Source of the DNA: Nereocystis luetkeana
Taxonomy: Eukaryota > Sar > Phaeophyceae > Laminariales > Laminariaceae
Length of the DNA stretch: 64,000 bases
Assembly (NCBI GenBank): GCA_031213475.1
Contig: JARUPZ010000003.1
Coordinates: forward strand, 14,316,869 to 14,380,868
Direction of reading: 5' to 3'
Shown here: positions 2,035 to 62,172 of the stretch, piece after piece
Numbering within the stretch: position 1 is the stretch's first letter
Layout: each line of letters begins with the position of its first letter
Notes under the pieces: model-generated
Told to the model about the DNA's origin: nothing
Database searches by the model: none
The model's input: the letters and a program-made list of their open reading frames with translations, nothing else
Translations under genes and position numbers: made by a program

Positions 2035-5000
2035 GTGGGTTCAAAACGTATTCTGGTTGGAGCAAGGGATGCCCCTTGAGGGGTGGCAGCTTACTATTTT
2101 CGTTGAGGTTTTCACATGAAGAAGTTTGTTCCCATAAGCAACCCGACCAAGGTTTCTGTGCGCTGCTATTTATACTACTGTAGGTACTACTGTATGTAGT
2201 ACGTGAAATTGCCTGGGGTATTTATACCTACTTGGTAGTCGTGTTTCTACTTTTTGTTGGTGGACTCTGATGATCTTGAAGAGAGCCTCGGAGCGCACCT
2301 TTGAAACGGTGTGCCGGTGTGCGCATTCATGTTACGCAATCGTTGAGCATGACTCAGTCGATCGATTTTTGCAAATCAATCAACCGCAGAGTGGGTCCCT
2401 CTTCAGGCGGTCTGAGTAAAGGCGGTACCCCGTTATAAGGCGGCCGAAACCGCTATTACGGGGGACCATAGTTAACAGGACCAAATACTGTTATTACGGG
2501 GGGCCATAGTTAACAGGACCAAATATTGTTACCAAAAATGGTCAAATATATAGGTTTTTATGTACACCATAGGTCTGTTAACTAGGGTCCCCCGTAGGAG
2601 TAAAATGGTTAAATATAAAGGTTTTTTATGTATACCATAGGTCCTACCAGGTATTAACTATGGTCTCCCGTAGTAGGCGCGACTGGAGCATTGCCCTCAC
2701 CTATAACCTGTAACAAATAAGGCGGCTTCCCCCCATTCAAGGCAGTCATAGTGCTCTGGCACACCCCCTACTATTAACATTACGGGGGGCGATAGTAAAT
2801 AGGACCAAATAGTGCTCGTAAAAATAGCGAAATATACGGGTGTTTGTGTGTACCGTAGGTCCTGTTTAAATAGGGTCCCCCGTAACAGGGAGTAGGCACA
2901 CACAATGAAGATGGTTGCGTTGGGAAATGTGTAGCATCGAGGTGTATTTCCGTAGACACATCGCTCGTCGTGTTCAGTACGCCCTCCCGGTTGTCGGGGA
3001 ACCCGGCTTGGGTATTCTGTCCGAGGGGGCGTGTTATGTTATCACCCTGGGTGATACGGCATCCATCGCCAGTCATGGAACATCAGTGAGCCACCTTCAA
3101 TCGTCGGTAGTAGTGGCTCTTCAATCAGTCGTTGATATTTACAGCATCGGTCGTAGGGCGGGGGGTACTGGGTGACTCGGTCAGTATCGATTATACTGTC
3201 GTCAAAATCAACTCAGTATATGCTGGATTGTAGCAGTTACTGTCTCTCCTCTCCTCCCTCCTCCCGAAACGCATCTAGTGGGTTTTCGTACTACCATATG
3301 GCGTGTTTCTTGGGCGTGCGTACTATCAAACTACTGGCGAATAAAGCGCCCAGGTCAATCGGTAGATTACTACTGCCACATACTGTGCCAGTACCCAGCG
3401 CTCATCAATCAGCAAACAACCATCGTCGATCACCAATACCCAGGAAATGAATCGCCAATCAGCCCCCAGTGTTCAAAACCAGGTATCAATCACTAGCCAC
3501 CCACCCCTCACCAGTGTTCAAATTATCAATCATTAACCATAATCGATCACCACGCGAGCGGAATGGAATGCAGGTGTCGGATGATGGCGCTGAAAATCGG
3601 ACGTTTTCACATGAATGGGCGCCCGCCTTTTTTTCCCGTTTCCGATTTCGTGTGGATTCGGATCGGATCGGATCGAATCGAATCGGATCGGATGGGATCG
3701 AATCGGGCCACTTCTTTTCTTAAGACTCTTAGCTGGGCTTCAGTTTTTTTTCAATCGATTGCGTTTGTTTTTCTACTGGTGGTCGTTTCGTTGCGGTGCG
3801 TTTGTTCCCGTTTCGTTTGGTTCCGTTCCGTTTTATTTCATTTCGATTCGGATTGAATTAGATCCGGGATCGGACGCGGGGTCGGATCGGATCGGATCAA
3901 TAGGATCGGATCGGTTATTTTTTTTTGCGATTTAGTTCATTTCGATTCGTTGCAATTCGTATCGGTGTGTTTCCTACCGTCTATCGTTCATGGTTCACTC
4001 GTACAGCATTAATATAATATTAGTTTCCTTTGGCTTTGGTCTCCCTTGCGGTTGCTCACTTTTATTTTATTTTCGTTCCTTTGCTTCCTTCGATCTCCTT
4101 CGCTCTTTCCCCCTGTTTTTGCTAACAATATTTGGTCCTATTAACTATGGTCCCCCGTAATATAATAGTTTCGTTTGGCTTTGGTCTCCCTTGCTGTCGC
4201 TCGCTTTTATTTTATCTTCGTTCCTTTGTTTTCTTCGCTCTCTTTTTTTTTTTTCGCGGCAGATTCACCCCGGCATTGTCCGGCTGATGCAAGGGCGTGA
4301 GCCTTTCGACACCTCCATGGACGGCATGGACATGGAGGTCATGAAGGGATTCACGTGGGAGTCCATCATCGCCAGGTACAGTATGACATGACCGCATATG
4401 ATGACATGTCACGCTTGACGTCGAACATGGTAATTAATACGTAGGAAACCGGTCGACGCAAGCCGCATACGTCATACGATGACATGTCACGCTTGACGTC
4501 GAACATGGTAATTAACTTAATACGTAGGGGACCGGTAGACGCAAGCCGCATACTTCGTACGATGGCATGTCACGTTTGACGTCGAACATGGTAATTAACT
4601 TAATACGTAGGAGACCGGTCGACGCAAGCCTTGGCTGACCGTCCGTGACCGCCCCATACACCAAAACTAGTGTATGAAGGCCGCACGAGAGGTGTTGACG
4701 CGCTCCGAGGTCTCCTGATGTGACGTCAAAGGCGGTGTTTTACATGGGAGACCGGTCTTTTGGGGCGCCTCAAGACCTATATTACCCCTGAGTATACTAT
4801 TTCGGGGGGCCATAGTTAATAGGACCTATGGTATACATCAAAACCTATATATTTAACAATTTTTACTAACAATATTTGGTCCTAATAACTATGGCCCCCC
4901 GTAATAAGTCTAGTATTACGAGGAAACACATTACAGTCATCAAAACCATTTGGGGATGCCTAGGGTGGGGCACTGGGTGGCTCAGTCAGTAGCGATTAAG

Positions 5001-8000
5001 CTGTCGTCGCAATCAGCCAGCATATACTGGATTGCAGCAGTATACTGTCTCTCGTCTCTACTCTCTCCTCTCGGAGCGCGTTTTGTGGTTTGCCGTACTA
5101 AAACATGGCGTGTTTTTTGGGGGTACGTCAGATAAAAACTACTGGCGAATGTGCTGGCCAGGTCGATCAGACTACTACTGCCAGTGCCCAGCCCAGCTCA
5201 GTTCAGGGGTCCATCGGGGGTTCTGGTTACTATGCACCCCTGTATTATTACGGGACAATAGTAAATGGGACCTATCGTAAACACAAAAACTCATATATTT
5301 ACCTATTTTTACAAAAATATTTGGTCCTATTTACTAGGGTCCCCCGTAATAGTTGTAGTGTACGGAGCGGTCAGGGGCGGTCAGTCAAGGCCTACGTTGA
5401 CCTTTCAATACTATTTTTAGTGTAGAGGACGGTCAGGGTGGTCAGTCAAGGCCCACGTTGACCTTTGAATACTAATTTTAGGGTAGAAGACGGCCAGGGC
5501 GGTAATTCAAGCCAAGGCCTCTGTCGGCCTTAGTTTATTAGTCTTAGTGTATGGGCGGTCAGTCAAGTCAAAGCGTCTATTNNNNNNNNNNNNNNNNNNN
5601 NNNNNNNNNNNNNNNNNNNNNNNNNNNNNNNNNNNNNNNNNNNNNNNNNNNNNNNNNNNNNNNNNNNNNNNNNNNNNNNNNCTACAATGCCGGGGCGGAG
5701 CACGTCCTTTTTTCACCGACCAGGCAGACATTGTTTGCGCCAAGCGCGAAGCGCCGTGAGGTGTCGGGCGAGTCGCGTGAAGGGTGAGCTGCATCCTAGT
5801 AAGAACCGCTTGTAAGGCGGGCTTGCATATGGATTGGGAGGGGGGGGCATGAGAGGGGGAGAGGGGTGGGAGAGGGGATGGGTATCGTTGGTGTTCACTT
5901 GTGAATCGTGATAATTAATCGACAGTGAGCTGTTGACAAGCCTCCCGTGTGTGCCAGAAATCGAATGGTTTTGTGTGCCAAGATAAAAATTTTGTGAGGG
6001 GCTTGGAGGGTGGGAGATAAGGGATGGAGGAGCGAGGGCGTGGGTGGGGTTGTACTCGTGGCTGTTGTCTGACTTTGTGGGTCGCGAGAACAACCGAGGG
6101 TGAGTTTGCTGGCGATTATCTCGCGTGTGAGACTCGCAGGTTTGCTGGAGACAATATGCATGTCTACGCGAGAAGGGCGGGCCGGCCGGCGGTAGAGCGG
6201 TGGTCACAGCGCGGCCGCAAATATGGCGTGCTTTGCGCTCTATTACGGGGGACCATAGTTAATAGGACCAAATATTGTTACTAGAAACGGTTAAATGTAC
6301 AGGTTTTTATGTACACCACAGGTCCTATTAACTATGGTCCCCCGTAATAGTAGTTGGGAAATACTTGGCACCGCGCACCCCCCTCCCGTCAGGAGTCGGC
6401 TGGCTACCCGCTTTTATCTCGTCGCTGGCGGTGGTGGTGGTGACGTTGGTGGTGGTCATGCCTGGTATTTGGTTTCTGCGGCTGCTGTTTTGCTTGTTGT
6501 TGTCCTTTTTTTTTCGTGTTTGTTGTTTCTGCCGCTGCTGCCGCTGCTGTTGCTGCTGCTGTTGGTGGTTTTGCTGCCGCCGCTTCTGATTTTTGGCGTA
6601 TCATTTCTGATGCCGATACTGTTTTTTGTGCCCTGTGTGTGCTACACGCCCCCCCGCCTCCCCCTCCCCCGGTGATCAACCAGCTTCTGCGAACGATGCG
6701 GTTCTTCCTGTACAAGCGGAAGGACGCCGTGGCGCAGTGGTCCCGCAACCAGCAGTCGGCGCAAATCAATCACGAGAAGGAGGTGAGGGGGGTTGGTGTT
6801 GGTGGTTTTATTGCCGATGTAGTGGCGTCCCCGGGTCTACTATGCTCTCCCGGATTTTGTGCTCCGTCTCGAAAGGGATGCGGGGTCAATGGTCAAATGA
6901 CTAAGGCAAGCAACAAATGAGTACCCCCCCCCCCCCCCCCCCCTCCTCACTCCCGCTCTCCTCCCCCCGCCTCTCATAACGCCTCTTTTTTGTGTAGTTG
7001 ACGGTTTCAGGGATTTCGCCAATGTGGTGGTGAGTGTCCCTGGATCCAAGGTACACTACTGGGTTCGGTACACTAGATAGCAGCGAGAAAACGATCGCTG
7101 TCCTAGGGGAGAGATGGTGGCCACAGGCGGCGAAACAGGAAGGGGATAAGAGTAGCTAAAAGTTTATACTGTACTGTGTGTAACATATGGAAACAACGTA
7201 ATGAGCGCCCAACTGTTGGAGCTGTCTCTGTTTGGAGTAGGAACGGTACTCCGTCTCGAAATGGATGTGTGGTCAATGGTCAAACAACTAAGGCAGGCAC
7301 CAAATGAGTACCCCCCCCCCCCCACCCCCTCTTTTCACCCCCGCCCTCTTCTCCCACCCCCCTCCCCCCCTTTCAAAACGCCTTTTGGTGGTGTAATTAA
7401 GGGTTCCAAAGATTGCCAATGAGGTGGTGTCCCTGGATCCACGATACACTACTGGACTTTGACCCCCCCCCCTCCCCCCCTCCTATAACGCCTTTTGGTG
7501 TTGTATTTTACGGTTTCAGGGATTGCCGATGTGGTGGTGTCCCTGGATCCACGACTTGGGTCTGATGGCGGGCTGCGTCCGTCACGGGTTCATGAACATC
7601 AACGCCATGCGGAGCGACACCACCCTGCCTCTGCACCCTTCTTCCGTCCAGGACCACATCACGCGCGCCCTCATCGTCGGCGTCGAAGACCCCATGTCTC
7701 ACATGGACGAAGGCTTTCCCACGGCGGGAGTGGCGCCTCCGGTGCCGCCGCCGGCGCCGGCTAGCCCACCCCCCCTGCCCCTGGACGGGACCAAAGGTCT
7801 CGTGGCCGGTGGGGAGGGTGGAGAGGGTGTTGGTGGCGTGGTCGGGGGAGCTGGGGGTGCGGGGGGTGGGGCTTATTCGTTGGCGTCGGCGGTGGCGGTG
7901 GCGGCGGCGGCCGTGAGGGCGGGGAAGGGTTTCGATGGCACCGACGAGGCCGTGCAGGCGTGGGCCGAGGAGAGCTCCTCGGAGTTCCCCACGCGGCGGT

Positions 8001-11435: not shown

Positions 11436-11556
11436 TATGACGGGGGACCATGTTAAATAGGACCAGACCTACGGTAGACACTAAAACCTGTATATTTCCC
11501 TATTTTTACTATCAATGTCTGGTCCTATTTACTACCAGGTATGCCCCCCCGTAATA
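11436..11556 (-). mobile_element. M1 hairpin MITE (type b) with TA micro-insertion
   Basis: TATGACGGGGGACC to CCCCCCCGTAATA. The right arm reads TTTACTACCAGGTATGCCCC where other copies have TTTACTATGG, a TACCAGGTA insertion. Confidence 0.9.
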
Positions 11557-14205: not shown

Positions 14206-15975
14206 ACGCGATTTGTAAAAATGAGTATCGACCGATCGATCGGTTGAACTCACAGCTATAGCTGTGACTGACCTGCTTTTTTTTCTTATTTTTTTCTTCA
14301 AAAAAAAAAAAAAAATGGTTGGCAGTTTTTGGCACCAAGGTTTTCGACATTTTCTAGTCGCCTGTTTTGACCGGGGGTCTACTTGTTGTGTCGAAAATCG
14401 AAAAAAAACGCACCGTGCGCGGCGCATCATACCACCACTGCCCGCTGTCCCTCCTCTCCTGGTTGGTGCTGGTGCTGCTACTTTGACTGATTGACGTCTG
14501 GCGAAGCACCAGACCCGCAGAAGAGAGGATCCCCTTTGGTGATTCGCGAGGGTTTGAGCCACGCCGACACCTCTCCTTTTGGTTTTTCCTCCTGTCTCCT
14601 GGGCCTGGTACGTCCTCCTCCTCTCTTCTCCCTGGTACTACACGACCACACCACCACTGCTACGATCGGTGAGAGATAGGCTGCATCTGCGCTGATGATG
14701 ATATGATACCAGGTATAATACGCTCTGACTTTCCCCACCTCTCTGCTGCTGTGCCCTCAACAATGCGGCTATTTTCTTCATACATCTACGTCACGCACAC
14801 GGGGACAGCAGCAGTCATGAGGGGATGAGGAGATGATACGTACAGGGTTGACATTAAATATTTGAAGTTACCACCTATTACCAGGTATACTTCCGTTCCC
14901 CTCGCTGCCTCGGCAAGGAATGCTGCGAGGCATGCCCTATCAGGCTATTAGCGAGTGGGGTAGGTCTTTCTGGCGGGTGTAAGGCCGGACTCACCCTCAA
15001 GGAGTGATACCTTCTTGCTGCTGCCTGTGGCCGCGAGGCTCAGGCGGCAGTAGAGTTGGGTCGTACGTGGTGCGTCAGGCACGGAGACCTACGATTCGCG
15101 CGTCTTTTTAGGCAGCTGCGGCAGAGCAGCAATGCTCAATCGGGGTGTCCATGCGCGGAGGCAGGCGCCACCACAGGCCACACTACGGCACAGTCTATTG
15201 CGCCGGTAGGAGGCTGGATTCGACGACGAGGGAGGAGGGAGACTGAGCGTCGACGTGCGGGGAAGAGACGGATTGACCTCCCCCTGCGCGAGAATTTTTA
15301 TTTCCCAGATCAGAACCGCAAGTGCGAGGAGCATTTTGTTTTTCAGGATGACGGAGAAAGGGAATCGACTGGAAGGGAATGGCAACGAGTGCACGCGCAA
15401 AGGAGCGGGTGGATTGGGCCAAGGCGATGATGCGGCCATGAAGAGCGGCAGGAAGACGGTGCATGGAGACCCATGATTTGCGCGCACACTATCATCACGA
15501 GAGAAGCAGCCATAGTTTGTTTTTTCCTGGTTTTGTTTTTCACGAGGCAGAATAGTATCTACCGGTACTCGTCACTGGTTTTTGTAGTTTAACGAGTTGT
15601 ATACCCTTCATGGGGAATAACCTACGCAACTATCAGGGACGTGGTATCATAACTGTGCTGCACCTTTTTGTGTCAGACAGTCCAGGAAGAGATGGCGATC
15701 GTTGATATTCGTGTGGCAGTAAGGTTCGATTGCTCCTTTTTTCACTGCATATCCGCGAGTCTTCACTCTGACAGCACTCCAGATAGCAGGCAGGTGTGTT
15801 CCTCTTTCGTTTTCACGACTACCGTGCGTTTCGTACGGTGCAGGCAGCACTTCAGACAGCATCCGCTGTAGTCAGCAGCCACGAGTTGGTTAGTGGTGGG
15901 AACGGGGGTACTCTTCTATCTATGTTATAGTTGAGAGGATATACCCGCGGCCATGTTAGTTCAGTTTTGCACATA
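14205..15975. other. No supported gene
   Basis: T-rich and A-rich runs near 14275-14315. A frame around 15345-15475 (MTEKGNRLEGNGNECTR) follows a TTTTTCAG acceptor-like site and ends in TGA, but no homologue or partner exon is recognised. Confidence 0.35.
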
Positions 15976-16712: not shown

Positions 16713-16801
16713 ACTCCAACAATGATGCGATGCACGAGGTACTTTTTTTTGTTCATTACCTGGTACCAGGTACCTGGTATGTATCAACACAGAGCATGAG
16801 T

Positions 16802-16999: not shown

Positions 17000-17690
17000 C
17001 AAAAAAAACAGAGATCAGACAGGAGGATGGTTCGTATACTGCCTGTATAATAGTATGATATGTACGTACCTGGTACGTACCATCATACGTACTGGTGCCT
17101 GCTGAGATATACAAGTCGTGCCGCATTCGTACCAGCGGCGCAGTGTAATGAGGAGGAGTGTGGGCGCCCAGTGCCCGGGAGTGTCGGGTCGTCGGGTCTT
17201 GGATCGCCATACTATAAATATAGTGCGAAGGCTCCCTTGCTTGTTGTAGCCGGCAATATAATGACAATTTGAGCTCTGATGTTAGAACTGAACGGGGATA
17301 CTATTCCAGGCCACAGCGTGGTTACACCACAGGTATATAGGAGGGGGGGGAGGCGGTCTGCCCAACAGACTGAAGCCTGGTTATGGCCATCATCGTCATG
17401 ATGCACTCCCTTCTTTGGGACCCAAGTAACTAGCATGGTGCTATCTGGGCAACGTTGCGTGTCTGTATGCTCCAGTGCCTGCCTTTCGTCTTTTCTTTCC
17501 CCCCCGCCCGTGATTATCGATTCTTTGTCCCTTCTTTTTTTTCTTTTTTTTTTTCTTTTTTTTTCTTCTTTTTTTTCATTTTTCATTAATTCCCGTTTGT
17601 ACCTCTTTGTGTCTTTGTTAGTATGGTCCGTTTTGCCTTTTTTTGCGTTTTGCTATCTCAGATTCTGCTTCTGTTTTTGTTTTGTTTTGT
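17000..17690. other. T-rich, no gene
   Basis: Holds a pyrimidine tract at 17527-17590. The frames here are Phe/Ser/Leu artefacts of T-rich sequence. Confidence 0.5.
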
Positions 17691-18888: not shown

Positions 18889-19339
18889 GATACGACAGGC
18901 AGGACATGCACATTCTATAAAAGAGAGAAAAGTAAAGGTACAAAAACAACAACAAAAACGATGTCGACGGGTAAACACACCAAATATCAGGCAGGAGACA
19001 CTCAGTGTCAAGCTGTATGTCTGTCAAGGCTGTCAACGCAAATCTATTTGTCTATAGACATAATGTCCCCTACCCCGCCTGGCAGAAAAAGCATCATTAC
19101 ATGTGTGGAAACCCCTATTATTATTATTTTTTATTTTTTAGCTCCAGCTGTTTCACTCATTACCTGGTATTATATGTGGAGCTTTCTTCACAATAATATC
19201 GAGATTCTGCGTTTCAATTGGTATTTTTCTGTAGATCGGACTCGGAAATTTATCAAAATGCCGAAAAAAGATGACAGGAGAACTCACTGATTTTCGTCAA
19301 TATGATATTTATAGGCGTTTCCGGAAGAACGGGGGGGTT

Positions 19340-23670: not shown

Positions 23671-23811
23671 TACCAGGTAGTAGGCTATCACCGCTGTTTA
23701 CAGCAGCAATACTATAATACCTCTCTCTGTAGTCTGTATCATTAATTTAATATTACAACAGCAGCAGTATTAATAAGTACCGCAATAAAATACCGGGTAC
23801 GTACGATGTTG

Positions 23812-23910: not shown

Positions 23911-23949
23911 ATACCAGGTACCAGGTAGGTATATATATATATATATATA

Positions 23950-24140: not shown

Positions 24141-24453
24141 TATACTACGCGGTAAATAACTACCAGGTATTAGTATGTAGTGCGCTCTTTTTTGTTGAAG
24201 ATATACCGACCCAAAACAATGGTTGGTGACTCCGGTGTGATCAACCATCTACGACCAGTAACACAGCAGCACGGGTGGGATCATATTTCGCGCGTGCCGT
24301 ATATACACAGCATGCTGCAGTAGTATTAGTATTAATACGACTCCTTGCATCCTAATCACGTAGTTAGTGACCGTTTTGCTGTAATCAATGTTGTATCCTC
24401 AATTATTCCCCCCCCTGAAGTCCGGAGAGGGTTAATAAATAATAAGACGCAGA

Positions 24454-25490: not shown

Positions 25491-25815
25491 GAGAAGATAG
25501 AAACAACCAATTCCGCAGCAACTTTCCAAGAATTATACCAAACCAGGTAGCATCTATTTGGAGCGAATTTGCCGCTGGCTGTTGTGGCGCCCCTAATAAA
25601 AACGCATGTGTATGTATACAACAGATATACAATAGATATGCAGTAGTCAGTATTATTAATATTATTAGTATACGGCCATCCCGTGTTGAGCACTGCCTGC
25701 GGACGGCTAAATAGGTTTAGTTTTTTGGAGGGCTCAGGTCAGGGCGCCAAGCGCTGTAAAATATATTACTGATACTACAGCAGCATATTTTACGTAATGA
25801 ATACTCTACTACTAT

Positions 25816-34835: not shown

Positions 34836-34908
34836 GTTGTGTGGCAGTGTTTTTACCGGTTTACCTGGTATTATTTTTCCCACCCGTAACCCGTTATTAA
34901 TAGCAACT

Positions 34909-38543: not shown

Positions 38544-38664
38544 TTTGCGGGGGACCATAGTAACTATTAATAGAACCAAATATTGTTAGTAAAAATAGGT
38601 AAATATATACCTGGTAGGTTTTTGTGTGTACCATAGGTCCTATCAACTATGGTCCCCCGTAATA
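38544..38664 (+). mobile_element. M1 hairpin MITE with two TA micro-insertions
   Basis: AGTAACTATTAATAGAACC stands in place of AGTTAATAGGACC. ACCTGGT lies between AAATATAT and AGGTTTTT. Confidence 0.88.
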
Positions 38665-44600: not shown

Positions 44601-47540
44601 GACGAGTGAGTTTTGTTTTTGTTGTTTTTTTCACCGGAAGTTTTTTGTTTTGTCTTCGAGACCCCCAGAAAAAACAAAAACAAGTATGTGGCGAAAACGG
44701 GAACTAACAAAAACACCCGACTCATCTTTGGCCTAGGGGGGGGCTCATAGAATTCATAGAACACGGATGCCAAATTTTAGGGTCCAACTCCGAAAAACGG
44801 CTATTACGGGGGACCATAGTTAATACCTGGTAGGACCAAATATTGTCAGTAAAAATGGTTAAATATTTAGGTTTTTATTCATACCATAGGTCCTATTAAC
44901 TATGGCCCCCCGTGATAGAAGAGTGGACTCTGAAGGAAGTTGGTGCGATAGGCTTGAACCCGCTCGTAACAGGTAAATAATGATCACCAGGTATTTAGGA
45001 TTAGCAGAAGGAAGTTGATGCGATAGGCTTGAACCCGCTCGTAACAGGTAAATAATGATCACCAGGTATTTAGGATTAGCAGAAGGAAGTTGATGCGATA
45101 GGCTTGAACCCGCTCGTAACAGGTAAATAATGTTTACCAGGTATTTAGGATTAGCAGAGGTATCTGGTTCCTGTAGTTTTGGCAACCCTTCGCGCTTTTT
45201 ACCCGCCTGTTTTACTGTAATTCTTTTTTGCTTCATTTCCCTCTCTAACTTTCCTCCCCACCCGCTCCCTCCCTTTTCTCCCCCTTTTTTATGCCCCCTC
45301 TCTCTCCCACTCCCTCCCCCACTCCTCTCTCTATCTTTTTCTACTGTTGATAACACCTCGTATGAACAGCGCTGGTTTGGTACATTTTCCGCGAAATATA
45401 CACTACCGACGAGTCTCCCGATATATGTAGGTGAGTCAAACGGTCGGTAGAATGGAAAACAGGGGGGGGGTGAGGAGGGGGCAGGGGGGGGGGGGTGGAC
45501 TCATGCCAGGCATGGCCGTAGGCGTACGACCGTAGACCCTCGCATCCCTACAATGCCGGGACGGAGAACGTCGGGTTTTCGCAGGCCAGGCGGCCATTGT
45601 TTGCACCAAGCGCCAAAGCTGGCTAAGGGTGACACCAATATGTGCTGAAGTGTGCACAGATTAATACCGGTATTTGGTACCTTGCATTTCAACCAGAATT
45701 TAGATTCTAGGGTTGCGTGTTTTTGTTTACAATATATTCGAAAGCTTACCATGTGTTGTGTTTTATTTTGTGAAATTGACGTTTAGCAAAGCGAGAGGGC
45801 GGGTGTACTCATTGTTAGGCATGGCCATAATCGTACGACCATAGACCCGCATATCCCTCCAAAGCCACGACGGTGGTTTTCACAGACCAGGCAGGCATTG
45901 CTTGCACCAAGCCCGAATCATCGTGAGGTGCTGGGCGAGTCGCATGAAGGATGGGCTGCGTCCTACAAATCATAAAATTTGGAAATGAAGTGAAAATGGG
46001 GTATAGACGAGACATATTACGCAGCTTGCAAAGTTGAGTATCAACTATATAATCAGTCGAACTCACAGCTGACGTATTTCCTAACTTTATAAAAAAATAA
46101 CCGCCTGTGAAGCGGACCCTTCTTGTACAAATGGATTAACGCTTCCCTGAGTTGATGGATTTATTTTCCGGTGTGGCCACTTCCAGAAACAGCAATAGGT
46201 GTACTATGTAAGTGCCCCATGGGCGCCTGACCATGTACGCACTACGTGATACGATTATTCCCCTTGCGCAGAGTTTAGATCCTTCCCCCCCTCCACAATA
46301 TCATCTACAGTAACTCGACCACACCATGGTGACCGACAAGAAAAAGGTGCCTGGCTGTCTAACTCACGCCGTGATTGGCGTGTTGGCGTGGTCTACCGCG
46401 TCGTTCCCAACCCACGCCAGCCCAACTTACATACCTGGTACCAGGTATATATTGAAGTAAATATATGTATATACACATACTTAAAGTTACCCTTTTCCTA
46501 AAATCACTTGATCATAACAAGCACCTGCCTCACGCTCAGCGAGTCTCCCACGGTTTTTTGTCGCTTCTACGATCCTTGCTTTCTTCGCGTTCTTTGCTTT
46601 CTTTGCGTGCTTGCTTCTCGCGCCACACTTTTTTGCCCGGAACAATAGAAAAAATAATAATATACCTGGTATATATATAATATATACCAGGTATATGTAT
46701 ACGTGGGGGAGGGGACCAATTTGTTTTGCGTTTCGCGGTCGTGACGTGCCCGTTCTGCATCTTTAATCACGCCGCACCCTTAATCACGCCGCACCCCTAT
46801 GTACGCTGTCCATTTGGTCACGCCGCACCCTAGAAATTTGTCACATCGTCACGCCACGCCCCTGATCGTGCCGCACGTTTTCCTACGCCGCAACCTCTAA
46901 TCACGACGCTCCGGAACCATGCCGCTCCCTGGAACCCTTCATCATTATCATTATTAATGTCGCACCTTTGTCGCGCCTCTCATCACGCCGCATTTTCATC
47001 ACGACACACTCTTCATTTTTAATCGCACCGCACCCTTAATCTATTTATGCCGCACCCTTATTCCTTAATCATGCCTCACCCTTGGTCCTTAATCCCTAAT
47101 CACACCGCACCCTTCATCCTTCGTCAGGCCGCACCCTTGATCCTTAATCACGCCGAACTTTAATCACGCCGCACCCTTAACCCCGCACACTTGATCCTTA
47201 ACCACGTCGCACGTTTAATCCTCAACCACGCCGCACGTTTAATCCTTAACCACGCCGCACGTTTAATCCTTAACCACGCCGTACATTTTATCATGCCGCA
47301 CTTTAATCTCGCCCCACCCTTAACCTGATCACGCCGCACCCTCAATCCTTAATCACGCCGCACCCTTGATCCTTAACCACGCCGCACGTTTATTTGCGCC
47401 GCAGATGGAGGGCCGACGTCTATTCCGACGACGTGAACGCGACGCGAAAATTCAAGCTCGAGCAAAAAATGCACGTGAAGGCAGTCTACGAGCTGCGCAG
47501 GTTTTGCGGCAAGATCAAGAATGCAGTGGGCGATTCATAA
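39492..47540 (+). CDS. DUSP-domain-like protein gene, candidate exons
   Basis: Plus-strand exons: 39492-39778, 40330-40548 (3' limit unsure), 42499-42662, 43339-43455 and 47405-47540. The firm part is the third and fourth exons, which join in phase: FWFLIDSTWISNWIDFVMGK, TAPPGPISNLNLFD, then KPRLQKLRDYRAVH. The pattern Trp-x6-Trp, PGPI(S/D)N and a later DYR.V is that of the DUSP domain of ubiquitin-specific proteases and related proteins. No protease core is visible. Phases do not join exon 2 to exon 3 or exon 4 to the last exon, so small exons are unseen, or the outer exons belong to other genes. Function beyond the DUSP fold cannot be assigned. Confidence 0.5.
40330..40548 (+). CDS. Candidate exon (AKVAQRWMSQKMSSRKGSS)
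   Basis: Acceptor GGTGCCCAG, phase 0. Reads AKVAQRWMSQKMSSRKGSS, TTSQRFAQPLASEGK and on to TAG at 40546. A donor before the stop is likely but not fixed. TACTCGTA lies inside at 40484. Confidence 0.4.
   Translation, partial: AKVAQRWMSQKMSSRKGSSAVTTSQRFAQPLASEGKGSVFSVDLPLSKRPVLLVQQLVCPCTYRPRKGRSAD
40749..40843. mobile_element. M3 hairpin
   Basis: CCTTTTAAGGCAAACTGCTG to AACATGGGACAGCGGTCTTG. Confidence 0.7.
40970..41170 (-). mobile_element. SINE S3, tRNA-derived
   Basis: On the minus strand, GAGTTCGAATCTCACCG is a B box and GTTTGCCTCGAATGCTAC is the anticodon-arm region. After an A-rich linker comes CCGTGGGTAGGCACAATTCC, the S1-type core. The head differs from S1 and S2. Confidence 0.75.
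41205..41285 (-). repeat. Element A end fragment
   Basis: G tract, GTGTACTCGATAGG, ATGCATGGCCGTAGTCGTAT. Confidence 0.82.
41290..42215. other. No gene; (CT)n at 41633-41690
   Basis: A TCTCTCTC tract and T-rich runs. No supported exon although it lies inside the DUSP-gene span. Confidence 0.5.
42221..42338 (+). mobile_element. M1 hairpin MITE (type a) with ACCAGGT
   Basis: TATTACGGGGGGCC to GGTCCCCCGTAATA, with AAATATATACCAGGTAGG in the loop and TATTATAAC for TATTAAC in the arm. Confidence 0.9.
42499..42662 (+). CDS. DUSP-like exon 1
   Basis: Acceptor GGTCGCAG after a G tract, donor GAGAAT/GTGAGT. 54 codons with one base on each side. Trp at FWFLIDSTWISNWIDF and PPGPISN are the hallmark residues. 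Clean codon use. Confidence 0.72.
42781..42842 (+). repeat. Element A end fragment
   Basis: TATGGTCATACGACTACGGC, CATGCATGAGATCGAGTAC. Confidence 0.82.
43339..43455 (+). CDS. DUSP-like exon 2
   Basis: Acceptor GTTGGCAG, donor GCACC/GTGAGT; two bases complete the split codon from exon 42499. MLLKHAANASARNGVMAARP, then LKPRLQKLRDYRAVH. Confidence 0.68.
43638..43703 (-). mobile_element. M1, internally deleted (type b)
   Basis: TATTACGGGG joins directly to TATTTCGCTGTTTTTAC; right arm intact to CCCCCGTAAC. Confidence 0.8.
43842..43920. mobile_element. M3 hairpin
   Basis: TAGTCCTGCAGTTCCGTTGT to AAAACGGGACTGCAGTC. Confidence 0.68.
43888..44259 (+). CDS. Unrecognised ORF
   Basis: The last 80 codons (HALSSQILSGTNADRNIHWS, AYGWHHTECREKRKRVANEV) look like folded-protein sequence; the first 20 overlap an M3 hairpin. 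Lies in the DUSP-gene span on the same strand, but no splice join was found. Unknown. Confidence 0.25.
   Translation: MQLVPKRDCSLHSPEILIGVNEKKRRRSPSCHHVAIENNLRSGFRVLVRLTHPYDPFKNPKRYRRVHALSSQILSGTNADRNIHWSAYGWHHTECREKRKRVANEVSFLMEALELALSYQSRA
44482..44590 (-). mobile_element. M1 hairpin MITE (type b)
   Basis: TATCACGGGGGGCC to GGTCCCCCGTAATA. Confidence 0.9.
44802..44917 (+). mobile_element. M1 hairpin MITE (type a) with ACCTGGT
   Basis: TATTACGGGGGACC to GGCCCCCCGTGATA. The left arm reads GTTAATACCTGGTAGGACC. Confidence 0.9.
44935..45159. repeat. 75-bp tandem repeat x 3
   Basis: Units GGAAGTTGATGCGATAGGCT to TATTTAGGATTAGCAGAA, period 75. Each holds ACCAGGTA, so that motif predates the amplification. 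Confidence 0.95.
45494..45634 (-). repeat. Element A copy
   Basis: GACTCATGCCAGGCATGGCC to CTAAGGGTGACAC, behind a G tract. Confidence 0.85.
45803..46290 (-). repeat. Element A, long copy with a 130-bp insertion
   Basis: GTGTACTCATTGTTAGGCAT to GTCCTAC, a foreign block at 45969-46099, then AACCGCCTGTGAAGCGGAC and the 5' part back to CCCCTTGCGCAGAG. Confidence 0.75.
46765..47400. repeat. Minisatellite TTAATCACGCCGCACCC
   Basis: About 35 degenerate units of 16-24 bp (TTAATCACGCCGCACCC, later TTAACCACGCCGCACG). The array ends at the acceptor of the exon at 47405, whose CGCCGCAG is itself the last unit. Confidence 0.92.
47405..47540 (+). CDS. Candidate terminal exon (WRADVYSDDVNATRKF)
   Basis: Acceptor GCGCCGCAG, then 44 codons to TAA: WRADVYSDDVNATRKFKLEQ, MHVKAVYELRRFCGKIKN. 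Charged and helical in character. Needs a phase-2 donor upstream, which the DUSP exon at 43455 (phase 1) does not give. Either a small exon lies between them or this is another gene. Confidence 0.5.
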
Positions 47541-48909: not shown

Positions 48910-50055
48910 ATCGGCCCCACTTGTAGCAGTAGCCCGCAAAATATTATGGGGGCTTTGTTGACGCATTGTTAGCATTTTGCCGTCGCTAATGGGTTATATA
49001 CGGGGCGGGATGGCGCATCTAGTGCCGGAGTTACATTGCAAGGAGTTGTGTCACGCGCTCTTTACGAGATAGCACTCGTACTCTCGTGCTCTAGGCTGTA
49101 GGTGAGACCGCGGTTCTGTATGGTGCGATCGTTATGCCTGCGTCCTGCAAGGGCAACAAACGTAAAACCCTACCACTTCTGTCCCGAAAATGTAAGGGAG
49201 GTTTTGATCAAGTAGTATTAGCATACCAGGTACAAACGTTTGCTCAAGTTTGGAGACAGAGTGGTAAATAGGTAGGTGGGAGTTGTAGTATTTCGGTTGG
49301 CTGTACAAAAAAGGAGGTGGGGGTGGCTGTGACGCTACTATAACGTTGCCCAAGGTATCAATAGGACCACCCCTTAGGCTTGTAATCTGCCAGTGTCGGC
49401 ATATGTGTATATATTGGCTGAGATTTGGTCTTTGTCGTGCTGTCTGTTTTGCTTGTCTCGTAGATCGTTGGGTTCATACACGTCGTGTCGGTCTGTCCTG
49501 GAGGGAACATCGTTATGTGTTATCGAGCGGGGATTATCGTAGAGTGACGGGAGGTGCTCTACCCTGCAATTATTGCTCTGCAGTCGGGTAGGTATGGACG
49601 TCATAGTATTGCTCAGCCGTTGGTTGGCATTTAGACCGTGCTCGTGTTGTTGCGTTATATGGGAGGGACATCGTTGTAGTAGAAATAACACTTACTTGTA
49701 GGCATGTGTGTGCGCCGCCTTTTGTTTTGCATATGGGAGCGATACGTACACTGGATGAGTCTTGTTCGTTGTTGTGTTGTAGTTGTTATTGTTGTTTCTT
49801 TGGTGCTGTTAGCTTTGTAGTACATCGGGGAGGGCGTTCTGCGTTCTGGTTCTGGTATATACGTATGTGCCTCGTGTAGAGTACGCACATACCTGGTACT
49901 ACTGTAACAATACCTGGCACATTTGTAGCAGAGATTGGGCCTTAGCCTTTCCCTGCTGCTAAAAGCGTCCCGCACTAATTTCAAGGTAGTTGCCCCCGAT
50001 AATGTAGGCCGGGTTAATATTAATAGTATTGTAAGTACTGCGACGTCGACTTTCA
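48910..50055. other. No supported gene
   Basis: Only scattered short frames; TACCTGGTA motifs at about 49220 and 49892. Confidence 0.4.
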
Positions 50056-51930: not shown

Positions 51931-52199
51931 CCTTGTTAATAGTACTGGGAGGACCCCTACTACTCTATGCTGTACCTGGTATGATATTGGTACCCTTCGG
52001 AGGGTCTGATTGCCATCAGAGTAGTACACTTTTTGGAGACATACATACACACTGCTTTGAGTTATGTTACGTGAGTGATTAGTTGTTGCAGTAGCAGCAA
52101 GGCTTACTGGTCGGGAAGATAAGACGACCCCGTTTTGGTTTTCAAGTAAGTGTCCAAACGGGCACTATCCTCACGGTCAAGAGTGATACCCGGTAAATA

Positions 52200-54215: not shown

Positions 54216-57200
54216 CTGCATTGTGTTTCATCAGTGATTCCCAGGAGCCCCGGAGAGGGGGGGGTGGCGGGGGGGGTCGGGAGGGGGGGGGGCACCCGGT
54301 ATCACTCGATATATCATGCATGGCCGTAGTCGTATGACCATGGACCCTCGCATCCCCACAATGTCGGGACGGAACACGTCGGGTTTTCACCGACCAGGCA
54401 GACATTACTCGCACCCAGCGCGGAGCGCCGTGAGGTGTTGGGCGAGTCGCATGACGGGTGAGCTGCATCCTACTAAAAACCGCTTGTGAGGCGGACTTGC
54501 ATAATAGTGGTGGTGGTGGGGGGGGGTACTCGAGATATTATGCATGGCCGTAGTCGTATGACCATAGACCCTCGCATCCCTACAATGCCGGGACGGAGCA
54601 CGTCGGGTTTTCACCGACCAGGCAGACATTGCTTGCACCAAGCGCGAAGCGCCGTGAGGTGTCCGGCTAGTCGCATGACGGGTGAGCTGCATCCTACTAA
54701 GAACCGCTCGTGAGGCGGACTTACATATGGATGACAGCTTCAATGAGTTAATTTAATTTCCGGGGGGGGGGGTAGTCAAGGGACTGGGAAAATGCTGCGA
54801 TGATATAAGGGGTTTCTATTGTCAGGAGCAAACAGGACACCGCGAAGGGGTTTGTGGGGGGCAGGTACCAGGGGGAAAGGCCGGCGTATACCTGGTATCG
54901 TGCCGCTGCTGTAGTAACACTTGCTCACGATGAGCTTGCAACCAAAGTGTGCGTATGGGCTGTCAAAAGCAGCAGTGCATGGCAGAAAATCCATTCCAGC
55001 ATGGTGGGGGGGCGCGGGACCCAACAGCCCCCCGTTAATCAGCCCACGGTCTGCAGGTAACGGAAACAGGCGGGTGATGATATACATACAACACACGGGT
55101 GACAATATGCGACACCCCGATAATAATATACTACACCCCGATGATAATATACCACACCCGGGTGATGATATACCACACCCCGGTGATAATATACCACACC
55201 GCTTCGGACGGCTTTCCAAGCGATGCGTCTAGGGAAAAAACTCTCGACGAGGAAAGCATCCAACGCCACACGCTTCTGGTCGTGTGGCAGGGGGGGGCGT
55301 GTGTAACGGTGTTCGTGTTTACTATTTAACGTGACTTCCATAAGTAGGCATGTTGTGGTCGGGCACTGGGCCCGTTGATATCGGAGAGTTCTACCATAAC
55401 TTCCAAAATTGGGAATTTGGGAAAAAATTATCAGGACACGGAGGCGTACTGTCACGATTCGTGTTTTTTCAACAGACAAGATTCCAATTTTTTTACGAAT
55501 TGTTTTTCGGGGAAATCTGCAAGAAAAAAACAAAACGCGCGAAAAAAGGCCAGGAAATTCTGGGGGGGAGAAACTCTCCTATCGTATTAGCTTCTACGCG
55601 TCGGAAAGAGGTCGCCGACTTCCACTTGATTATCTACAGTATCTACAGTAGATATAGATCTTTCAGTGCAGATAGATAGATCTACTCCTGATCTGTATGA
55701 TATGTATGATCTAGTTCACGTCTGCACGATTTACATTAGGATATGCTTGCTGCGTGGGATGTATGATATACAGATCCTGCACAACCTATCATAGGGTTGG
55801 ATTATCCATCTGAAGATGATATATCTGCAGAAAGAAATATAGATAGATAGATATATCATGATCTATTCGACGTGCGACAGCTTCTACAGCGAAAAAATAC
55901 GTCCGGCAATCCTCACACCAACGGTATGGTCGATATTATATACCAGGTATAGTATAACCCCAACGCGGTTGCTCGAGCGACTCACCCAGTGCACCGCGAA
56001 CGATCGCTTGGCGCCCAAATCCTGGTGGATCGTGACAGCCTCCTCGGGAGAGCAGTGCTGCTCCTTCATGAACCACGCGGGCTCGTGAGCTCCTACAGGG
56101 AGCGCGGCTGCACGAGAAAACAAAGCGCGAGAGAAAACATAGCACTCTTGTGTATTGGAGAAAAAAATAAACTGATACAAAAAACGTACCAGGGCAGACC
56201 ATAAAAGCGATACACGCCAGGCAAAAAGTACACAGCAGTGTACTCCATGAAAACGTTAAAACACAAAGGAAGACAAACGAAAAAAGAACAGAAATCAAAT
56301 CCAAAACACGGAAACATTACCAATTGCTCACCGGTATGATACAACAGCATAAACACATGAAACACGAACCATAAACACATACAAAAACATACAATACATA
56401 CAACAACAACAAAAAAACACCAAACACGAAAACAACAGCACACAAAAAACTTGGAAAAAAACAACAAAAATAACAAGAATATATATACGAATATATCTCC
56501 AGAGTCATCTCACCTAGGTCGAACGGCCCATACCGCTCCCCGATTTTCCCGAAAACGGAGCAGTAGGCCGTGTCGCCCGCGAAAAAAAAACGTTCGCGGC
56601 TTCCGGTAACGGCAAACCCGCACCACAAGCTGACCACGCCCAGTAAATGGCAGCGGTTTTGTAGTGGTGGTGGCGGTGGTGGTGGTGGTGGCGGCGGTGG
56701 TGGTAGTGATGGAGGCGGTGGTGATGGAAGTGGTGGTGGTGGTGGTAGTGGTGGTGGTGGTGGTGGTGACGTGAAATAGGAAAAGGACGACGCGATGAGA
56801 TGAGGTTAAATCATATGCGGGGAGATAGGTGCGGTTATATCACATGCGGGGAGATAGGTGTATGCGGCGATATGCGGTTCGACGAGAAGAGGAAGCGATG
56901 ACGAGCGACGAGACGATATGACAGGCGATGCGATGCGGTGAGATTCGGCAATCGATGCGGCTGGAGGCGATGCTATGATTTGCTCGGGCAAGAGGCCCAT
57001 CCAGATAAATCCAAGACGCAGTAAGAGTCTTGCCGGTCCGAATACCCCCCCCTCCCCTCCCGCCTCCACCGGCCGCATTCACGCTTCAAGCTCCGGGAAA
57101 ACTCCCTATGAATACGCTGCCCTCTCAATCTCGAGACCAGGAAAAAATGCACACAAGGGCGTTGCTCTCGCGATTATCCCCACAAGACGATCCCAAAAAC

Positions 57201-57663: not shown

Positions 57664-60600
57664 CCACAAAACGCACGCAGAGCAGGCAAGCACACAAAAC
57701 TGGCTTTTCCAAGAAATTGTGTCCCGACGGTTGTGTATTACACACACGTACGTACAGAAATGGAATTTCGGCGGGGCATTCTGCCAAACCAAATTTGAGA
57801 AGCGGCACCAGCCGAACCAAAACTGCGATACAGCGGTACAAGAGGAATCTTTTGGTGGGCACTAGACTAGACTCGGACGCGTTTTACGATACAGGCAGGT
57901 AGCGCATTTCCGCCCGAGATGTTTTCCGAATGACGGGACTCCTTAACCAAATCTTGTTTTCCTCGACAAATTTATTTCTTGCATACTTGGGGCTTACTAG
58001 TAGTATGGAGCTCCATGAGTGAGGAGCCTCAGAAAAAAATAAAATATGCACGTCTACTGTATATTACGGGGGGCCATAGTTAACAGGACCAACTATTGTT
58101 AGTAAAAATGGTTAAACATGTACCAGGTAGGTTTTTATGTGTACCCTAGGTCCTGTTAACTATGGTCCCCCGTGATAGCATGCGTCCTTACTGGTCACTT
58201 GTGCAGGGTGTGATTGAACAAGCGCTCTCACCCCTTGACTCCCGAAGGCACGAGCCAGAGAGGGTCGTTTCCCACGGCCTTCACCGATCCAGCGTCGAGG
58301 TGGTCGTAATGGTTGTGGCTAAGCAGCACCACGTCGATGGGGGGCAGCTCGGCCACGGACATGGCCGGCGGGGTGAACCGTTTCGGCCCGACCATCTGGT
58401 TAGCCGACGCCCTATCCGAGAACATGGGGTCTGTCAACACGTTCAACCCGTCCATCTGTTTTGTTTTTTGTTTTTCGTTTTTTGTTTTTTTTGTTCGTGC
58501 GTTTTATATATACATATTTTTTAGTAGTATTAGTATTATTATTATTTGTAGGTTTATATATCGTTTAGTTTATAATTTGTATATTTTACAAATTTGATAT
58601 TTTTTTTTCAACATTTTTTTTCATGTTTTCCATTTTTGTCATATTCGGTTGTTTATTTTTCGTACGTATTTTTGATATTATGTTTTCGATGTATCAGGTA
58701 TACATTGTGAAGCGATGAGGTCGACACGCACACACGCAAAGAACGAACGGGGGTAGGGTGGGGGTTGGGGTTCAGGTGGGGATTGGTTGGGTTGGGGTTG
58801 TACAGTAATGCCGGTCCCTCTATAGCGCCCGTATGTATGCGCCAGCCAACAATACTGGCCCTATAGCGGCAACCGGCACTAATTACTCCGCACGCTGCCA
58901 CACTGGTGTAATATCATCTGTGCCAAGCGGTTTCACTGGCACTATGGCGGGCAGCCGGCACTCCTCAACCGGCACTAATTACTCCGCACACTGCCACACT
59001 GGTTGAATGTCATCTGTGCCAAGCGGTTTCACTGGCACTATGGCGGGCAGCCGGCACTCCTCAACCGGCACTAATTACTCCGAACACTGCCACACTACCA
59101 CACTGTGCCAAGCGACTTCGCAGGCACTACAATAGCGGGCAATCGGCACTATAGAGGGATCACTAAAGCGACTATGGTTGAAGTTGGGGTTGAGGGCGGG
59201 GTTGTGGTCTGGGGTGGGGTATATAAACCCGCCCTCATACGTGACGCCTCCCTACTGCCGCCGGGAGGAGATGGGCCGATCGGCGTGGAGTGCAAGAGAG
59301 GCGTTCCCAACTCAACTCTCATCAGCATACGAAGTTAGTACCGTGACGTCATCGTGGACAGCGTGCGTCGCTTCCCGTTAAAAAGCTAGAAACCAGACCG
59401 TGGAACACAACGACCAGACGGTGTAGAATGAAACGAACAGCCCGTGATTCACAACGACCAAAAAGCGACGCTAACGACCTGTAATCTATTATCTGCAATA
59501 CATCAGTCCAATTCCGGAACGTGCAGGATACCCCGTCAATCGCATTCCTGTCAAGGGGCATCAGGCAAACAGGGCAGCCGGACCTGCTTAAACAACTTCG
59601 ATATTCAAGCCCCCCTCCGCGCAAGGAAGAGGGGAGGGTCCCCGGGCGAGGACTCGGGGAGTTCCTAGAGACACGAAGGCGCAACCAGCATCTAGAGGAT
59701 ACCGGTAAACCCTCCCGCCACATCACGCCACGCATCACCGCTCGCAACAAGCCCAGCCGAGCATCTTTAGCACCCCCCTTCCCGCGTGCACGGCCTCAAC
59801 ACCGCCGCTGCCCCCCCTCCCCCCTTCCCCCTTTACCGTTCTCACCCTCCCCCAGCCCCCCCCCTCCGCCCCCTCAATTATATTCCTACCAAAACGCCTC
59901 CTCAAGGAAATCAATTCCAATTTTTTACCACGTCACCCCTCCTCCCCCCTCCCCCAACCCCACCCCCCCCAACCGAAATTCCTCCTCAAGGATTTCAATC
60001 AATATATTCACCTGGATGAGCATGGTGGCGTGTCCTATCCATGTCACTCGCATTGGATCATCCTTTCCGTGTCTCGCGATCTCGTCCAGTTCCACCTGCT
60101 CGAGCGAGGGAGACCAAAACAGGGGAGTGACCAATCCACCACCGTGAATTGCTTGTTGCGACACCCAGAGCTTTCATGATCAAATGTAAACAGCCTGCAA
60201 ACCCACAATATACCCGGCATGTGCTAGAAACATTAGCACACCACCACCCCCATCCCCCACCACTATCACCGCATGCCCATTACTCACATCGCGGACATTC
60301 CTCAACACCAAATCACACCACACCACATCACACCACCACCCCCCCCACCCTCCTCCACCACACCACACCCTACCTTACTACACCATGCCAAACCACATCA
60401 TACAAAACCATACCTTAGTACACCATACAAAACCACATCATAACAAACCATACCATACCATACCATACCATACTAAACCATACCATAGCAAACCATGCCA
60501 TACCATACCATACCATACCACACCATACCATAACATACCATACCATACCATACCACACCATACCATCTCATCCCACCTCAGCTTTTGGGAGCGCTTCCTT

Positions 60601-61515: not shown

Positions 61516-62057
61516 ATCCGGCACAAGTAGTGAACTTCGTATACGTCATGTGTTATAAAAGGGCGTCATATCATCATAAGGCGTCTATATCTAGGGTTTT
61601 TCAATATTCACGAGGCGTTTTTTCGAACACTTCTTGTGTAATGACATACCTGGTACATACCTGGTAGGGTATTCCAAGTGAAAACAGTTCCAGGACTTTT
61701 CGGGGAGTCCGAACCGAACCGAACCGCGATTCGGTCCTCTCTATATGTACCTGGTATATATACTATCACGGGCGAGCCTATTAATATATAGTACCACTCT
61801 GTCCCAGATTATAAAGACCTTGTTTACTTAACATTAGTGTACAAAAGTTCCTCATATTTGAGCACAGAGAGATGGAAAGCAGAACCGAATACGGTGTCTT
61901 CGGGTCCATCGTGGATTCGGATTACTGATACAGTCCGATTCGGTTCGGATCGCCCAACCATGACACACTTGACATCAAAAGTTTACCGGGTCCCGGATTT
62001 CTTGATTTCCCGTAAACCCCAGCATGGATTTTTTAGCGCCCCTTTTCCTACAGTAAC

Positions 62058-62172
62058 TATTACGGGGGACCGTAGTTAATACGACCAAATATTGTTAGTA
62101 AAAATGGTTAAATATATAGGTTTTTATGTATACCACAGGTCCTACCAGGTATTAACTATGCCCCCCGTAATA
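62058..62172 (+). mobile_element. M1 hairpin MITE (type a) with ACCAGGT
   Basis: TATTACGGGGGACC to GCCCCCCGTAATA, arm GGTCCTACCAGGTATTAAC. Confidence 0.92.

What the first reader, a model, noticed from the sequence alone, without database searches (positions are those of the whole stretch)
2640..62150. TA-to-TACCWGGTA micro-insertions recorded in paralogous repeats
Aligned copies of M1 differ by 7 bp inserted at a TA: GGTCCT-ACCAGGT-ATTAAC at 2645 and 62143 (plain GGTCCTATTAAC in 6241-6349 and others), AAATATAT-ACCTGGT-AGG at 38604, the same site with ACCAGGT at 42279 and 58119, TTAAT-ACCTGGT-AGGACC at 44818, and ACTACCAGGTATG at 11533. Each event turns TA into TACCWGGTA, so the TA is duplicated around a 5-bp near-palindrome. 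I count over 40 exact 9-mers by eye; chance gives about 0.5 in 64 kb. Tandem forms (TACCAGGTACCAGGTA) occur at 23911, 26240, 36606 and 46436. Either orientation is used at the same host site. No such motif lies in a firm exon. A footprint left by a TA-targeting transposase, or a repair or integration process with a fixed 5-bp product, would explain this. I know of no described process with this product.
Basis: partly seen in the sequence, partly recalled or inferred. Interest (0 to 1): 0.92.

Follow-up and report, generated by a model that had tools for sequence, protein, structure and literature searches.

The report
Fossil transposon-excision scars, TACCWGGTA
A genome that is probably a brown alga's is littered with the same tiny seven-letter insertion at TA sites, best explained as scars left each time a mobile DNA element jumped out, although the element itself was not found.

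Summary
The window holds 42 TACCWGGTA (23 with A, 19 with T) against about 0.55 expected; the 465-Mb genome holds 182,395 against 1,744 for the reversed word. Alignments of a ~110-bp repeat (M1) confirm 7-bp insertions at TA: insertion lengths peak at 7 bp, either W occurs at the same site, and filled copies are not each other's nearest relatives. Three further results point to a Tc1/mariner- or pogo-type transposase. Collapsed sites prefer the symmetric target AYA|TA|TRT known for Tc1. Tandem scars of orders AA, TT and AT are about equally frequent genome-wide, so units are separate events. Singly substituted copies are in excess, as expected of decaying fossils. My best reading: excision footprints of a TA-target cut-and-paste element with ends CCA..TGG or CCWGG, whose overhangs anneal with a central mismatch. 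Five bases lies just outside the 2-4 bp usually quoted. No parent was convincingly found in 0.33 Mb of sequence, one pogo-like relic with TACCAGG-starting imperfect inverted ends being a weak candidate; the genome does carry open pogo-type transposase frames. Against a simple story, minor variants of the scar lack the target preference. A known kind, in a new size and on an exceptional scale.

The parts
2645..2653 (.). scar TACCAGGTA in an M1 copy
   Evidence: absent from other M1 copies
11533..11541 (.). scar TACCAGGTA in M1 copy 11435-11556 (M1 position 16)
14707..14715 (.). scar TACCAGGTA
14879..14887 (.). scar TACCAGGTA
16757..16779 (.). triple tandem scar (W = T, A, T)
17067..17075 (.). 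scar TACCTGGTA
19161..19169 (.). scar TACCTGGTA
23671..23679 (.). scar TACCAGGTA
23912..23927 (.). double tandem scar (A, A)
24161..24169 (.). scar TACCAGGTA
26239..26254 (.). double tandem scar (A, A)
27767..27775 (.). scar TACCTGGTA inside a degenerate M1 copy (27677-27855) next to a short duplicated stretch
28968..28976 (.). scar TACCAGGTA
29171..29179 (.). scar TACCTGGTA
29346..29354 (.). scar TACCAGGTA
33772..33780 (.). scar TACCAGGTA
34862..34870 (.). scar TACCTGGTA
35692..35700 (.). scar TACCAGGTA
36609..36624 (.). double tandem scar (T, T) in a dispersed repeat; copies at 22020-21835 and 31627-31812 lack the 14 bp (their site reads TG in place of TA)
38608..38616 (.). scar TACCTGGTA in M1 copy 38542-38664 (position 60)
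42280..42288 (.). scar TACCAGGTA in M1 copy 42220-42339 (position 60)
44824..44832 (.). scar TACCTGGTA in M1 copy 44801-44918 (position 23)
45135..45143 (.). scar TACCAGGTA at the end of a 75-bp tandem repeat whose other units read ATCACCAGGTA
46432..46447 (.). double tandem scar (T, A)
46663..46671 (.). scar TACCTGGTA
46685..46693 (.). scar TACCAGGTA
49224..49232 (.). scar TACCAGGTA
49890..49898 (.). scar TACCTGGTA
51973..51981 (.). scar TACCTGGTA
54889..54897 (.). scar TACCTGGTA
55941..55949 (.). scar TACCAGGTA
58121..58129 (.). scar TACCAGGTA in M1 copy 58062-58178 (position 59/60)
61647..61655 (.). scar TACCTGGTA
61658..61666 (.). scar TACCTGGTA, 2 bp after the previous one
61748..61756 (.). 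scar TACCTGGTA
62143..62151 (.). scar TACCAGGTA in M1 copy 62057-62173 (position 86)
6240..6350 (+). M1 MITE copy without scar (empty reference)
25811..25938 (-). M1 copy with a 6-bp insertion TACTCG at the TA (position 23) that carries CCWGG scars in other copies: a different footprint-like insert

Best explanation
TACCWGGTA is the excision footprint of a cut-and-paste DNA transposon of the Tc1/mariner-pogo kind. The element inserts at a TA and duplicates it. On leaving, the transposase cuts a few bases inside the non-transferred strand, so each flank keeps terminal bases of the element (CCA or CCWGG) as a 3' overhang. The two overhangs pair as C:G, C:G with one A:A mismatch in the middle, and end joining plus mismatch repair gives TA-CC(A or T)GG-TA. 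Re-insertion into a scar's own TA and renewed excision builds tandem scars. Scars then decay. SHOWN here: 7-bp insertions at TA, genome-wide excess, symmetric AYA|TA|TRT target preference, independence of the events tested, similar counts of three tandem orders, an excess of singly substituted scars. INFERRED: the staggered cut, overhang annealing, the parent's end sequence, and that the parent is now rare or extinct.
For: Excess. Insertions relative to paralogues with a length peak at 7 bp; a self-comparison of 267.6 kb gave 48 records of 7-bp insertions (some are one event at shifted positions), 8 of the CCWGGTA class, second to a G-rich low-complexity word with 9. Independence. Target preference: 130 distinct sites in 324,616 bp; half-site AYA|TA 53 of 260 vs 13.9 expected, full AYATATRT 7 of 130 vs 1.14; A at -6 0.51 vs 0.25; three control words show none (1 of 46, 5 of 102, 0 of 28 half-sites); CCWGG ranks first among TA-X-TA words that are neither AT repeats nor parts of M1. 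Published Tc1 consensus CAYATATRTG (PMC9635669 passages). Tandems: AA 4800, TT 4739, AT 4522 genome-wide (TA order unanswered), so slippage is not the main source. Decay: 156 one-substitution neighbours vs 67 expected beside 141 exact copies; the four largest excesses in the outer positions are transitions except one. Complete pogo-type element with TA duplication in the same genome: L043 4552-7163. Precedents for short footprints and for re-insertion at an old footprint.
Against: No parent with matching ends was convincingly found; no M1 copy seen is split by an insert above ~100 bp, against 9 CCWGG-type insertions in 39 copies. Five bp lies outside the 2-4 bp (Tc1/mariner) and 0-4 bp (Passer, pogo) quoted in papers. 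Near-variants that I had taken for imprecise or decayed scars do not show the target preference: TACCAGTA/TACTGGTA 3 of 60 half-sites (3.2 expected), TACCGGTA 3 of 40 (2.1), TACCAGGGTA 1 of 24 (1.3), TACCSGGTA 0 of 30 (1.6), TACCWGGCA 3 of 48 (2.6). A scar on a scar's own TA is ~10 times commoner than random re-insertion predicts (11 vs ~1.1, my arithmetic). DDE_3 was not found; PF01359 gave 0 with a silent control.
Confidence: 0.72

Rival explanations
1. A direct micro-insertion process: a TA-specific nuclease or transposase-derived enzyme plus repair adds CCWGGTA without any long inserted element (abortive transposition).
For: No convincing parent and no M1 copy split by a long insert; one dominant product whose near-variants lack the target preference; strong preference for a scar's own TA.
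Against: I know of no described process with a fixed non-templated 5-bp product; target preference and pseudo-palindrome are what transposon ends would leave.
Confidence: 0.14
2. Programmed DNA elimination: TA-bounded internal eliminated sequences are removed each generation and leave CCWGG scars in the sequenced nucleus.
For: Would explain 182,395 scars with hardly any element left.
Against: Singly substituted scars, also in the TA and CC/GG positions, are in excess, which scars re-made each generation from intact boundaries should not be, though the TACCWGGCA class lacks the target preference and may not all be decayed scars; in ciliates (recalled) a single TA is left; no nuclear dimorphism is known to me in brown algae (recalled).
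Confidence: 0.04
3. A few ancestral repeat sub-families carried the motif and spread it, or it is a selected binding site.
For: Some scars lie in repeats; the motif is near-palindromic; the five M1 copies filled at one site are slightly more alike than random.
Against: None of the five has a filled copy as nearest relative and W differs; 130 sites have distinct flanks after duplicates were removed; TA insertion in aligned copies.
Confidence: 0.04
4. Replication slippage or microsatellite-like growth of a 7-bp unit.
For: Tandem arrays exist; one 6-bp CTGGTA length polymorphism between two individuals could be a tandem duplication.
Against: Single scars dominate; AA, TT and AT tandems are about equally frequent, whereas slippage makes AA and TT only.
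Confidence: 0.03

Closest known systems
Excision footprints of Tc1/mariner elements and Stowaway MITEs
   Same: TA target and duplication; short terminal fragments left between the two TAs; symmetric AYATATRT target; re-insertion at an old footprint described (PMC1925063, PMC9635669, PMC7913693; passages only)
   Different: 5 bp instead of 2-4; one nearly uniform product; 182,395 scars in one genome; parent not found
pogo/Tigger elements (DDE_1 transposase), e.g. Passer
   Same: TA duplication; transposase frames with DDE_1 occur in this genome, three of three examined also matching HTH_Tnp_Tc5, one of them below its cut-off; footprints of 0-4 bp reported (PMC9976928 passage)
   Different: the one complete element seen here (L043) ends in CAG...CTG, not CCW...WGG
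Ciliate internal eliminated sequences
   Same: TA boundaries (recalled)
   Different: precise removal leaving one TA (recalled); here two TAs and 5 bp remain
Mariner-Tc1 families of the brown alga Ectocarpus
   Same: brown-algal TA transposons and MITEs, 17 families and 11,912 copies (PMC12477816 passages)
   Different: no footprint of this kind is mentioned in the passages seen; whole text not read

Membership tests
Tc1/mariner-type excision footprint | Insertion at TA with TA on both sides | tested here: met
Tc1/mariner-type excision footprint | Symmetric AT-rich target AYATATRT | tested here: met
   half-sites 53 of 260 vs 13.9; full 7 of 130 vs 1.14
Tc1/mariner-type excision footprint | Footprint of 2-4 bp | tested here: not met
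   5 bp between the TAs; 4- and 6-bp variants are over-represented but lack the target preference
Tc1/mariner-type excision footprint | Footprint equals the terminal bases of a resident element | tested here: inconclusive
   only L044 3063-9192 has TACCAGG at both ends of an imperfect inverted repeat (23 of 28) around a transposase gene; its ends matched exactly nowhere else
Tc1/mariner superfamily, classic members | Tc1/IS630 transposase domain PF13358 in the genome | tested here: not met
   0 matches in 30 candidates scored; control rang in 3 of 14 genomes
Tc1/mariner superfamily, classic members | Mariner transposase domain PF01359 in the genome | tested here: inconclusive
   0 matches but the control was silent too
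pogo group | DDE_1 transposase PF03184 in the genome | tested here: met
   28 matches, best E 3.4e-28; control silent in all 14
pogo group | The pogo element leaves CCWGG | not testable with these tools
   needs an excision assay; L043 ends are CAG...CTG
Internal eliminated sequences | Precise excision to a single TA, scars re-made each generation | tested here: not met
   two TAs plus 5 bp remain; singly substituted scars in excess

The most novel reading that the evidence does not exclude
The scars are made without a lasting insertion: a TA-specific transposase, perhaps a domesticated pogo-type enzyme of this alga, carries out abortive or extremely short-lived insertion-excision and writes a fixed 7-bp mark about every 2.5 kb of genome, each mark being itself a preferred site for the next.
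Probability: 0.15. Interest if true: 0.93.

Novelty: new variant of a known kind. Interest (0 to 1): 0.72.

Why it matters
If the reading holds, this genome keeps a countable record of past excisions (182,395 exact scars, 7 bp each, about 0.27% of its bases), so the history of a cut-and-paste element can be read from scars even if the element is rare or gone. Scars could serve as insertion-only markers for populations and sister species, the 5-bp size would extend what TA transposases are known to leave, and the missing parent is a concrete target. One-step insertions without a parent would mean an undescribed mutational process.

Tried and rejected
Parent search: TACCNGG...CCNGGTA pairs with inverted extensions up to 9 kb in 267.6 kb; TA-flanked inverted repeats in general in the same sequence; clustering of 147 half-sites in 328.3 kb; TACCW inverted pairs in the same 328.3 kb, 18 pairs with 13 or more of 20 bases equal against 8-91 for seven control prefixes. 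What came up: tandem scars, other MITEs and inverted copies of longer repeats (the one 20-of-20 TACCW pair, L043 2252-3589, looks like two inverted copies of another repeat), and the L044 relic. L044 first looked decisive; the genome-wide pattern search (301 matches with up to 2 mismatches, 100 listed) then matched exactly only L044's own two ends, and many listed places are tandem scars. Its transposase seems, by eye against L043, to lack two of the catalytic D residues, so I demoted it. M1 as parent: its ends read TA|TTACGG, not CCW. The idea that TACAGTA and TACTCGTA are sister footprint classes: both are over-represented, but neither shows the target preference; one TACTCG insertion in M1 is real. 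Viral collection: M1 word 0 hits, triple array 0, double array 9 contigs, not analysed. Literature: the word TACCAGGTA occurs in 119 papers, 20 listed, none on transposon scars by title; the listings of searches showed me no genome-wide scar of this kind; no paper was read whole. Also seen as passages without decisive use: PMC8525568, PMC3770610, PMC3660474. Haplotig comparison C384 vs C3: identical over 9,947 bases, an assembly duplicate. TACCTGGTACCAGGTA count: asked twice, never answered.
Full report
What is there. The window (64,000 bases, 100 N) is part of a 465,085,209-base assembly in 1,987 contigs, at C3:14316869-14380868. A LINE ORF is nearest to unnamed or bacterially filed metagenome proteins (76% for the first hit) and, among hits named after an alga, matches Ascophyllum at 47%. 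A pogo-type transposase of the same genome matches Ectocarpus sp. CCAP 1310/34 at 88% over 87% of the query. The host is therefore most likely a brown alga; the species was not identified. TACCAGGTA occurs 23 times and TACCTGGTA 19 times in the window, against 0.55 expected together. Genome-wide there are 182,395, against 1,744 for the word read backwards. Twenty 10-kb stretches hold 78 by my sum, so the window is denser than average.

Insertion, not chance wording. In 39 aligned copies of the ~110-bp MITE called M1 (window, 20 stretches, algal part of L001; 80-96% identical to their consensus), the commonest insertion length is 7 bp (10 cases, against 8, 4, 4, 1, 2 and 2 for 1 to 6 bp), and 9 of the 10 are CCWGGTA-type at a TA, one of them decayed. 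The scar at 2645 is a further case from another alignment. Five copies are filled at M1 position 59/60, three with A and two with T; in none of the five is the nearest relative another filled copy, though as a set they are slightly more alike than random sets of five (0.855 vs 0.824; 12% of random sets reach it). The 14-bp double scar at 36609 is missing from similar stretches at 22020-21835 and 31627-31812, where the site reads TG in place of TA. A self-comparison of 267.6 kb gave 48 records of 7-bp insertions, 8 of this class, second to a G-rich low-complexity word with 9.

Target. Collapsing scars to one TA gives 130 distinct sites in 324,616 bases (window, L011-L030, L035-L044; the last group was chosen for transposases, and by their coordinates L039 and L040 overlap by about 0.6 kb). 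They prefer A at -1 and -3, C or T at -2, A at -6, A or T at -7, symmetrically. The half-site AYA|TA occurs 53 times of 260 (13.9 expected), the full AYATATRT 7 of 130 (1.14 expected). TACAGTA (10 of 262), TACTCGTA (4 of 90), TACCSGGTA (0 of 30) and three control words lack this. Among TA-X-TA words with at least 6 occurrences and 4 such half-sites, CCWGG ranks first once AT repeats and parts of M1 are set aside. The Tc1 consensus is CAYATATRTG (PMC9635669, passages).

History. One-substitution relatives number 156 against 67 expected beside 141 exact copies (3.1 expected). The excess is largest for A>G and T>C in the TA (24 vs 6.0 and 22 vs 6.5), then W to C/G (15 vs 3.2) and C>T (17 vs 5.2), with smaller excesses for some transversions. 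I read this as neutral decay; a single burst would then be about 7% diverged (inference). A caution: the TACCWGGCA class, the largest, shows no target preference (3 of 48 half-sites, 2.6 expected), so part of it may not be decayed scars. Tandem scars occur 11 times in the sample (TA 3, AT 2, AA 3, TT 3) and genome-wide as AA 4,800, TT 4,739 and AT 4,522; the TA order did not complete. Similar counts for mixed and uniform orders exclude slippage as the main source. Random re-insertion would give about 1.1 in the sample (141 squared over 17,569 TAs, my arithmetic), so a scar's own TA seems to be a favoured target; I cannot explain this. A second individual is available by luck: L001 15-3640, the algal part of a chimeric MAG contig, matches C4:10948045-10951679 at 99%. 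In 3,634 aligned bases with 39 mismatches and 7 gaps, 3 of 3 scars are shared, and one of them differs by a 6-bp CTGGTA. This may be a shorter footprint on the scar's TA or a simple duplication; activity today is not shown.

Mechanism. A cut-and-paste transposase that targets TA and leaves terminal bases of the element would give TA-CC-W-GG-TA if the element's ends read CCA...TGG or CCWGG...CCWGG: the overhangs pair through the C:G steps on each side with an A:A mismatch, which repair resolves to A or T. That explains the near-palindrome, the fixed length and the near-even W (23:19). This step is inference from the chemistry of the superfamily as I recall it. Words one base shorter or longer are also over-represented (TACCGGTA 15 vs 3.5, TACCAGTA 27 vs 7.1, TACCAGGGTA 10 vs 0.48), but they lack the target preference (3 of 40, 3 of 60, 1 of 24 half-sites, all near expectation), so I do not count them as imprecise footprints. 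Papers seen as passages give footprints of 2-4 bp for Tc1/mariner (PMC7913693), 0-4 bp for the pogo-type Passer (PMC9976928) and 1-4 bp terminal fragments for Stowaway, with an element re-inserted at an older footprint's TA (PMC1925063). Five bases is just outside.

The missing parent. No DDE_3 transposase was found; PF01359 gave nothing with a silent control; DDE_1 gave 28 matches, some of them apparent assembly duplicates. L043 holds a complete 2,612-bp pogo-type element, TA duplicated, inverted ends CAGTGGGGGGCCCTATATAGTGCAGG, whose ends predict CAG scars, not CCWGG. L044 holds a DDE_1 gene between imperfect inverted ends that both start TACCAGG (23 of 28 identical, 6,130 bp), but genome-wide these ends were matched exactly only there. 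It may be a relic parent or two decayed tandem scars. Four searches for paired ends in 267.6-328.3 kb found nothing better, and no M1 copy seen is split by an insert above ~100 bp; one degenerate copy around the scar at 27767 has a short duplicated stretch. A low-copy element active for long would leave this picture, since scars accumulate and elements need not; but the absence also keeps abortive insertion alive, which is my novel case.

Verdict. Filed as a new variant of a known kind: TA-transposon excision footprints, 5 bp, at exceptional number, parent unknown.

Noticed in passing
window 6240-6350; 39 copies in all in window, L011-L030 and L001 1-3640: M1, a ~110-bp MITE with ~29-bp inverted ends and, in the few copies inspected, TA on both sides (TA|TTACGGGGG...); its own mobiliser is unknown.
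   Followed up: partly
L043 4552-7163 (G000:C1): Complete pogo-type element with TA duplication; by eye all three catalytic D residues are kept; subterminal GTGCAGGT repeats. A near-identical transposase stretch sits in L041.
   Followed up: partly
window and sample: TACTCGTA/TACGAGTA and TACAGTA/TACTGTA are about 3-7 times over-represented without the AYA target preference; one TACTCG insertion sits at a scar site in M1.
   Followed up: partly
L001 (JALZWD010000061.1): A contig filed as bacterial (Flavimaricola MAG) is chimeric: bases 15-3640 are 99% identical to this alga, the rest encodes bacterial-looking genes (by eye an ATP synthase beta subunit).
   Followed up: yes
G000 C384 vs C3:3733753 on: A small contig is an exact duplicate of a chromosome stretch over 9,947 bases; C809, C872, C1099 and C1378 carry the same DDE_1 match scores as C2 and may be duplicates too.
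   Followed up: partly
L016, L017, L001; L019, L044: A 77-bp element with inverted ends TAGAACCGCAGTCCCG, and another MITE-like repeat with ends AGGGTCATTCTTATCGGAG.
   Followed up: no
window 13076-13944: An 869-bp stretch bounded by inverted repeats identical over at least 40 bp.
   Followed up: no
genome sample: A scar's own TA carries a second scar about ten times more often than random re-insertion predicts; and TACCWGGCA is in excess without the scar's target preference. Both unexplained.
   Followed up: partly
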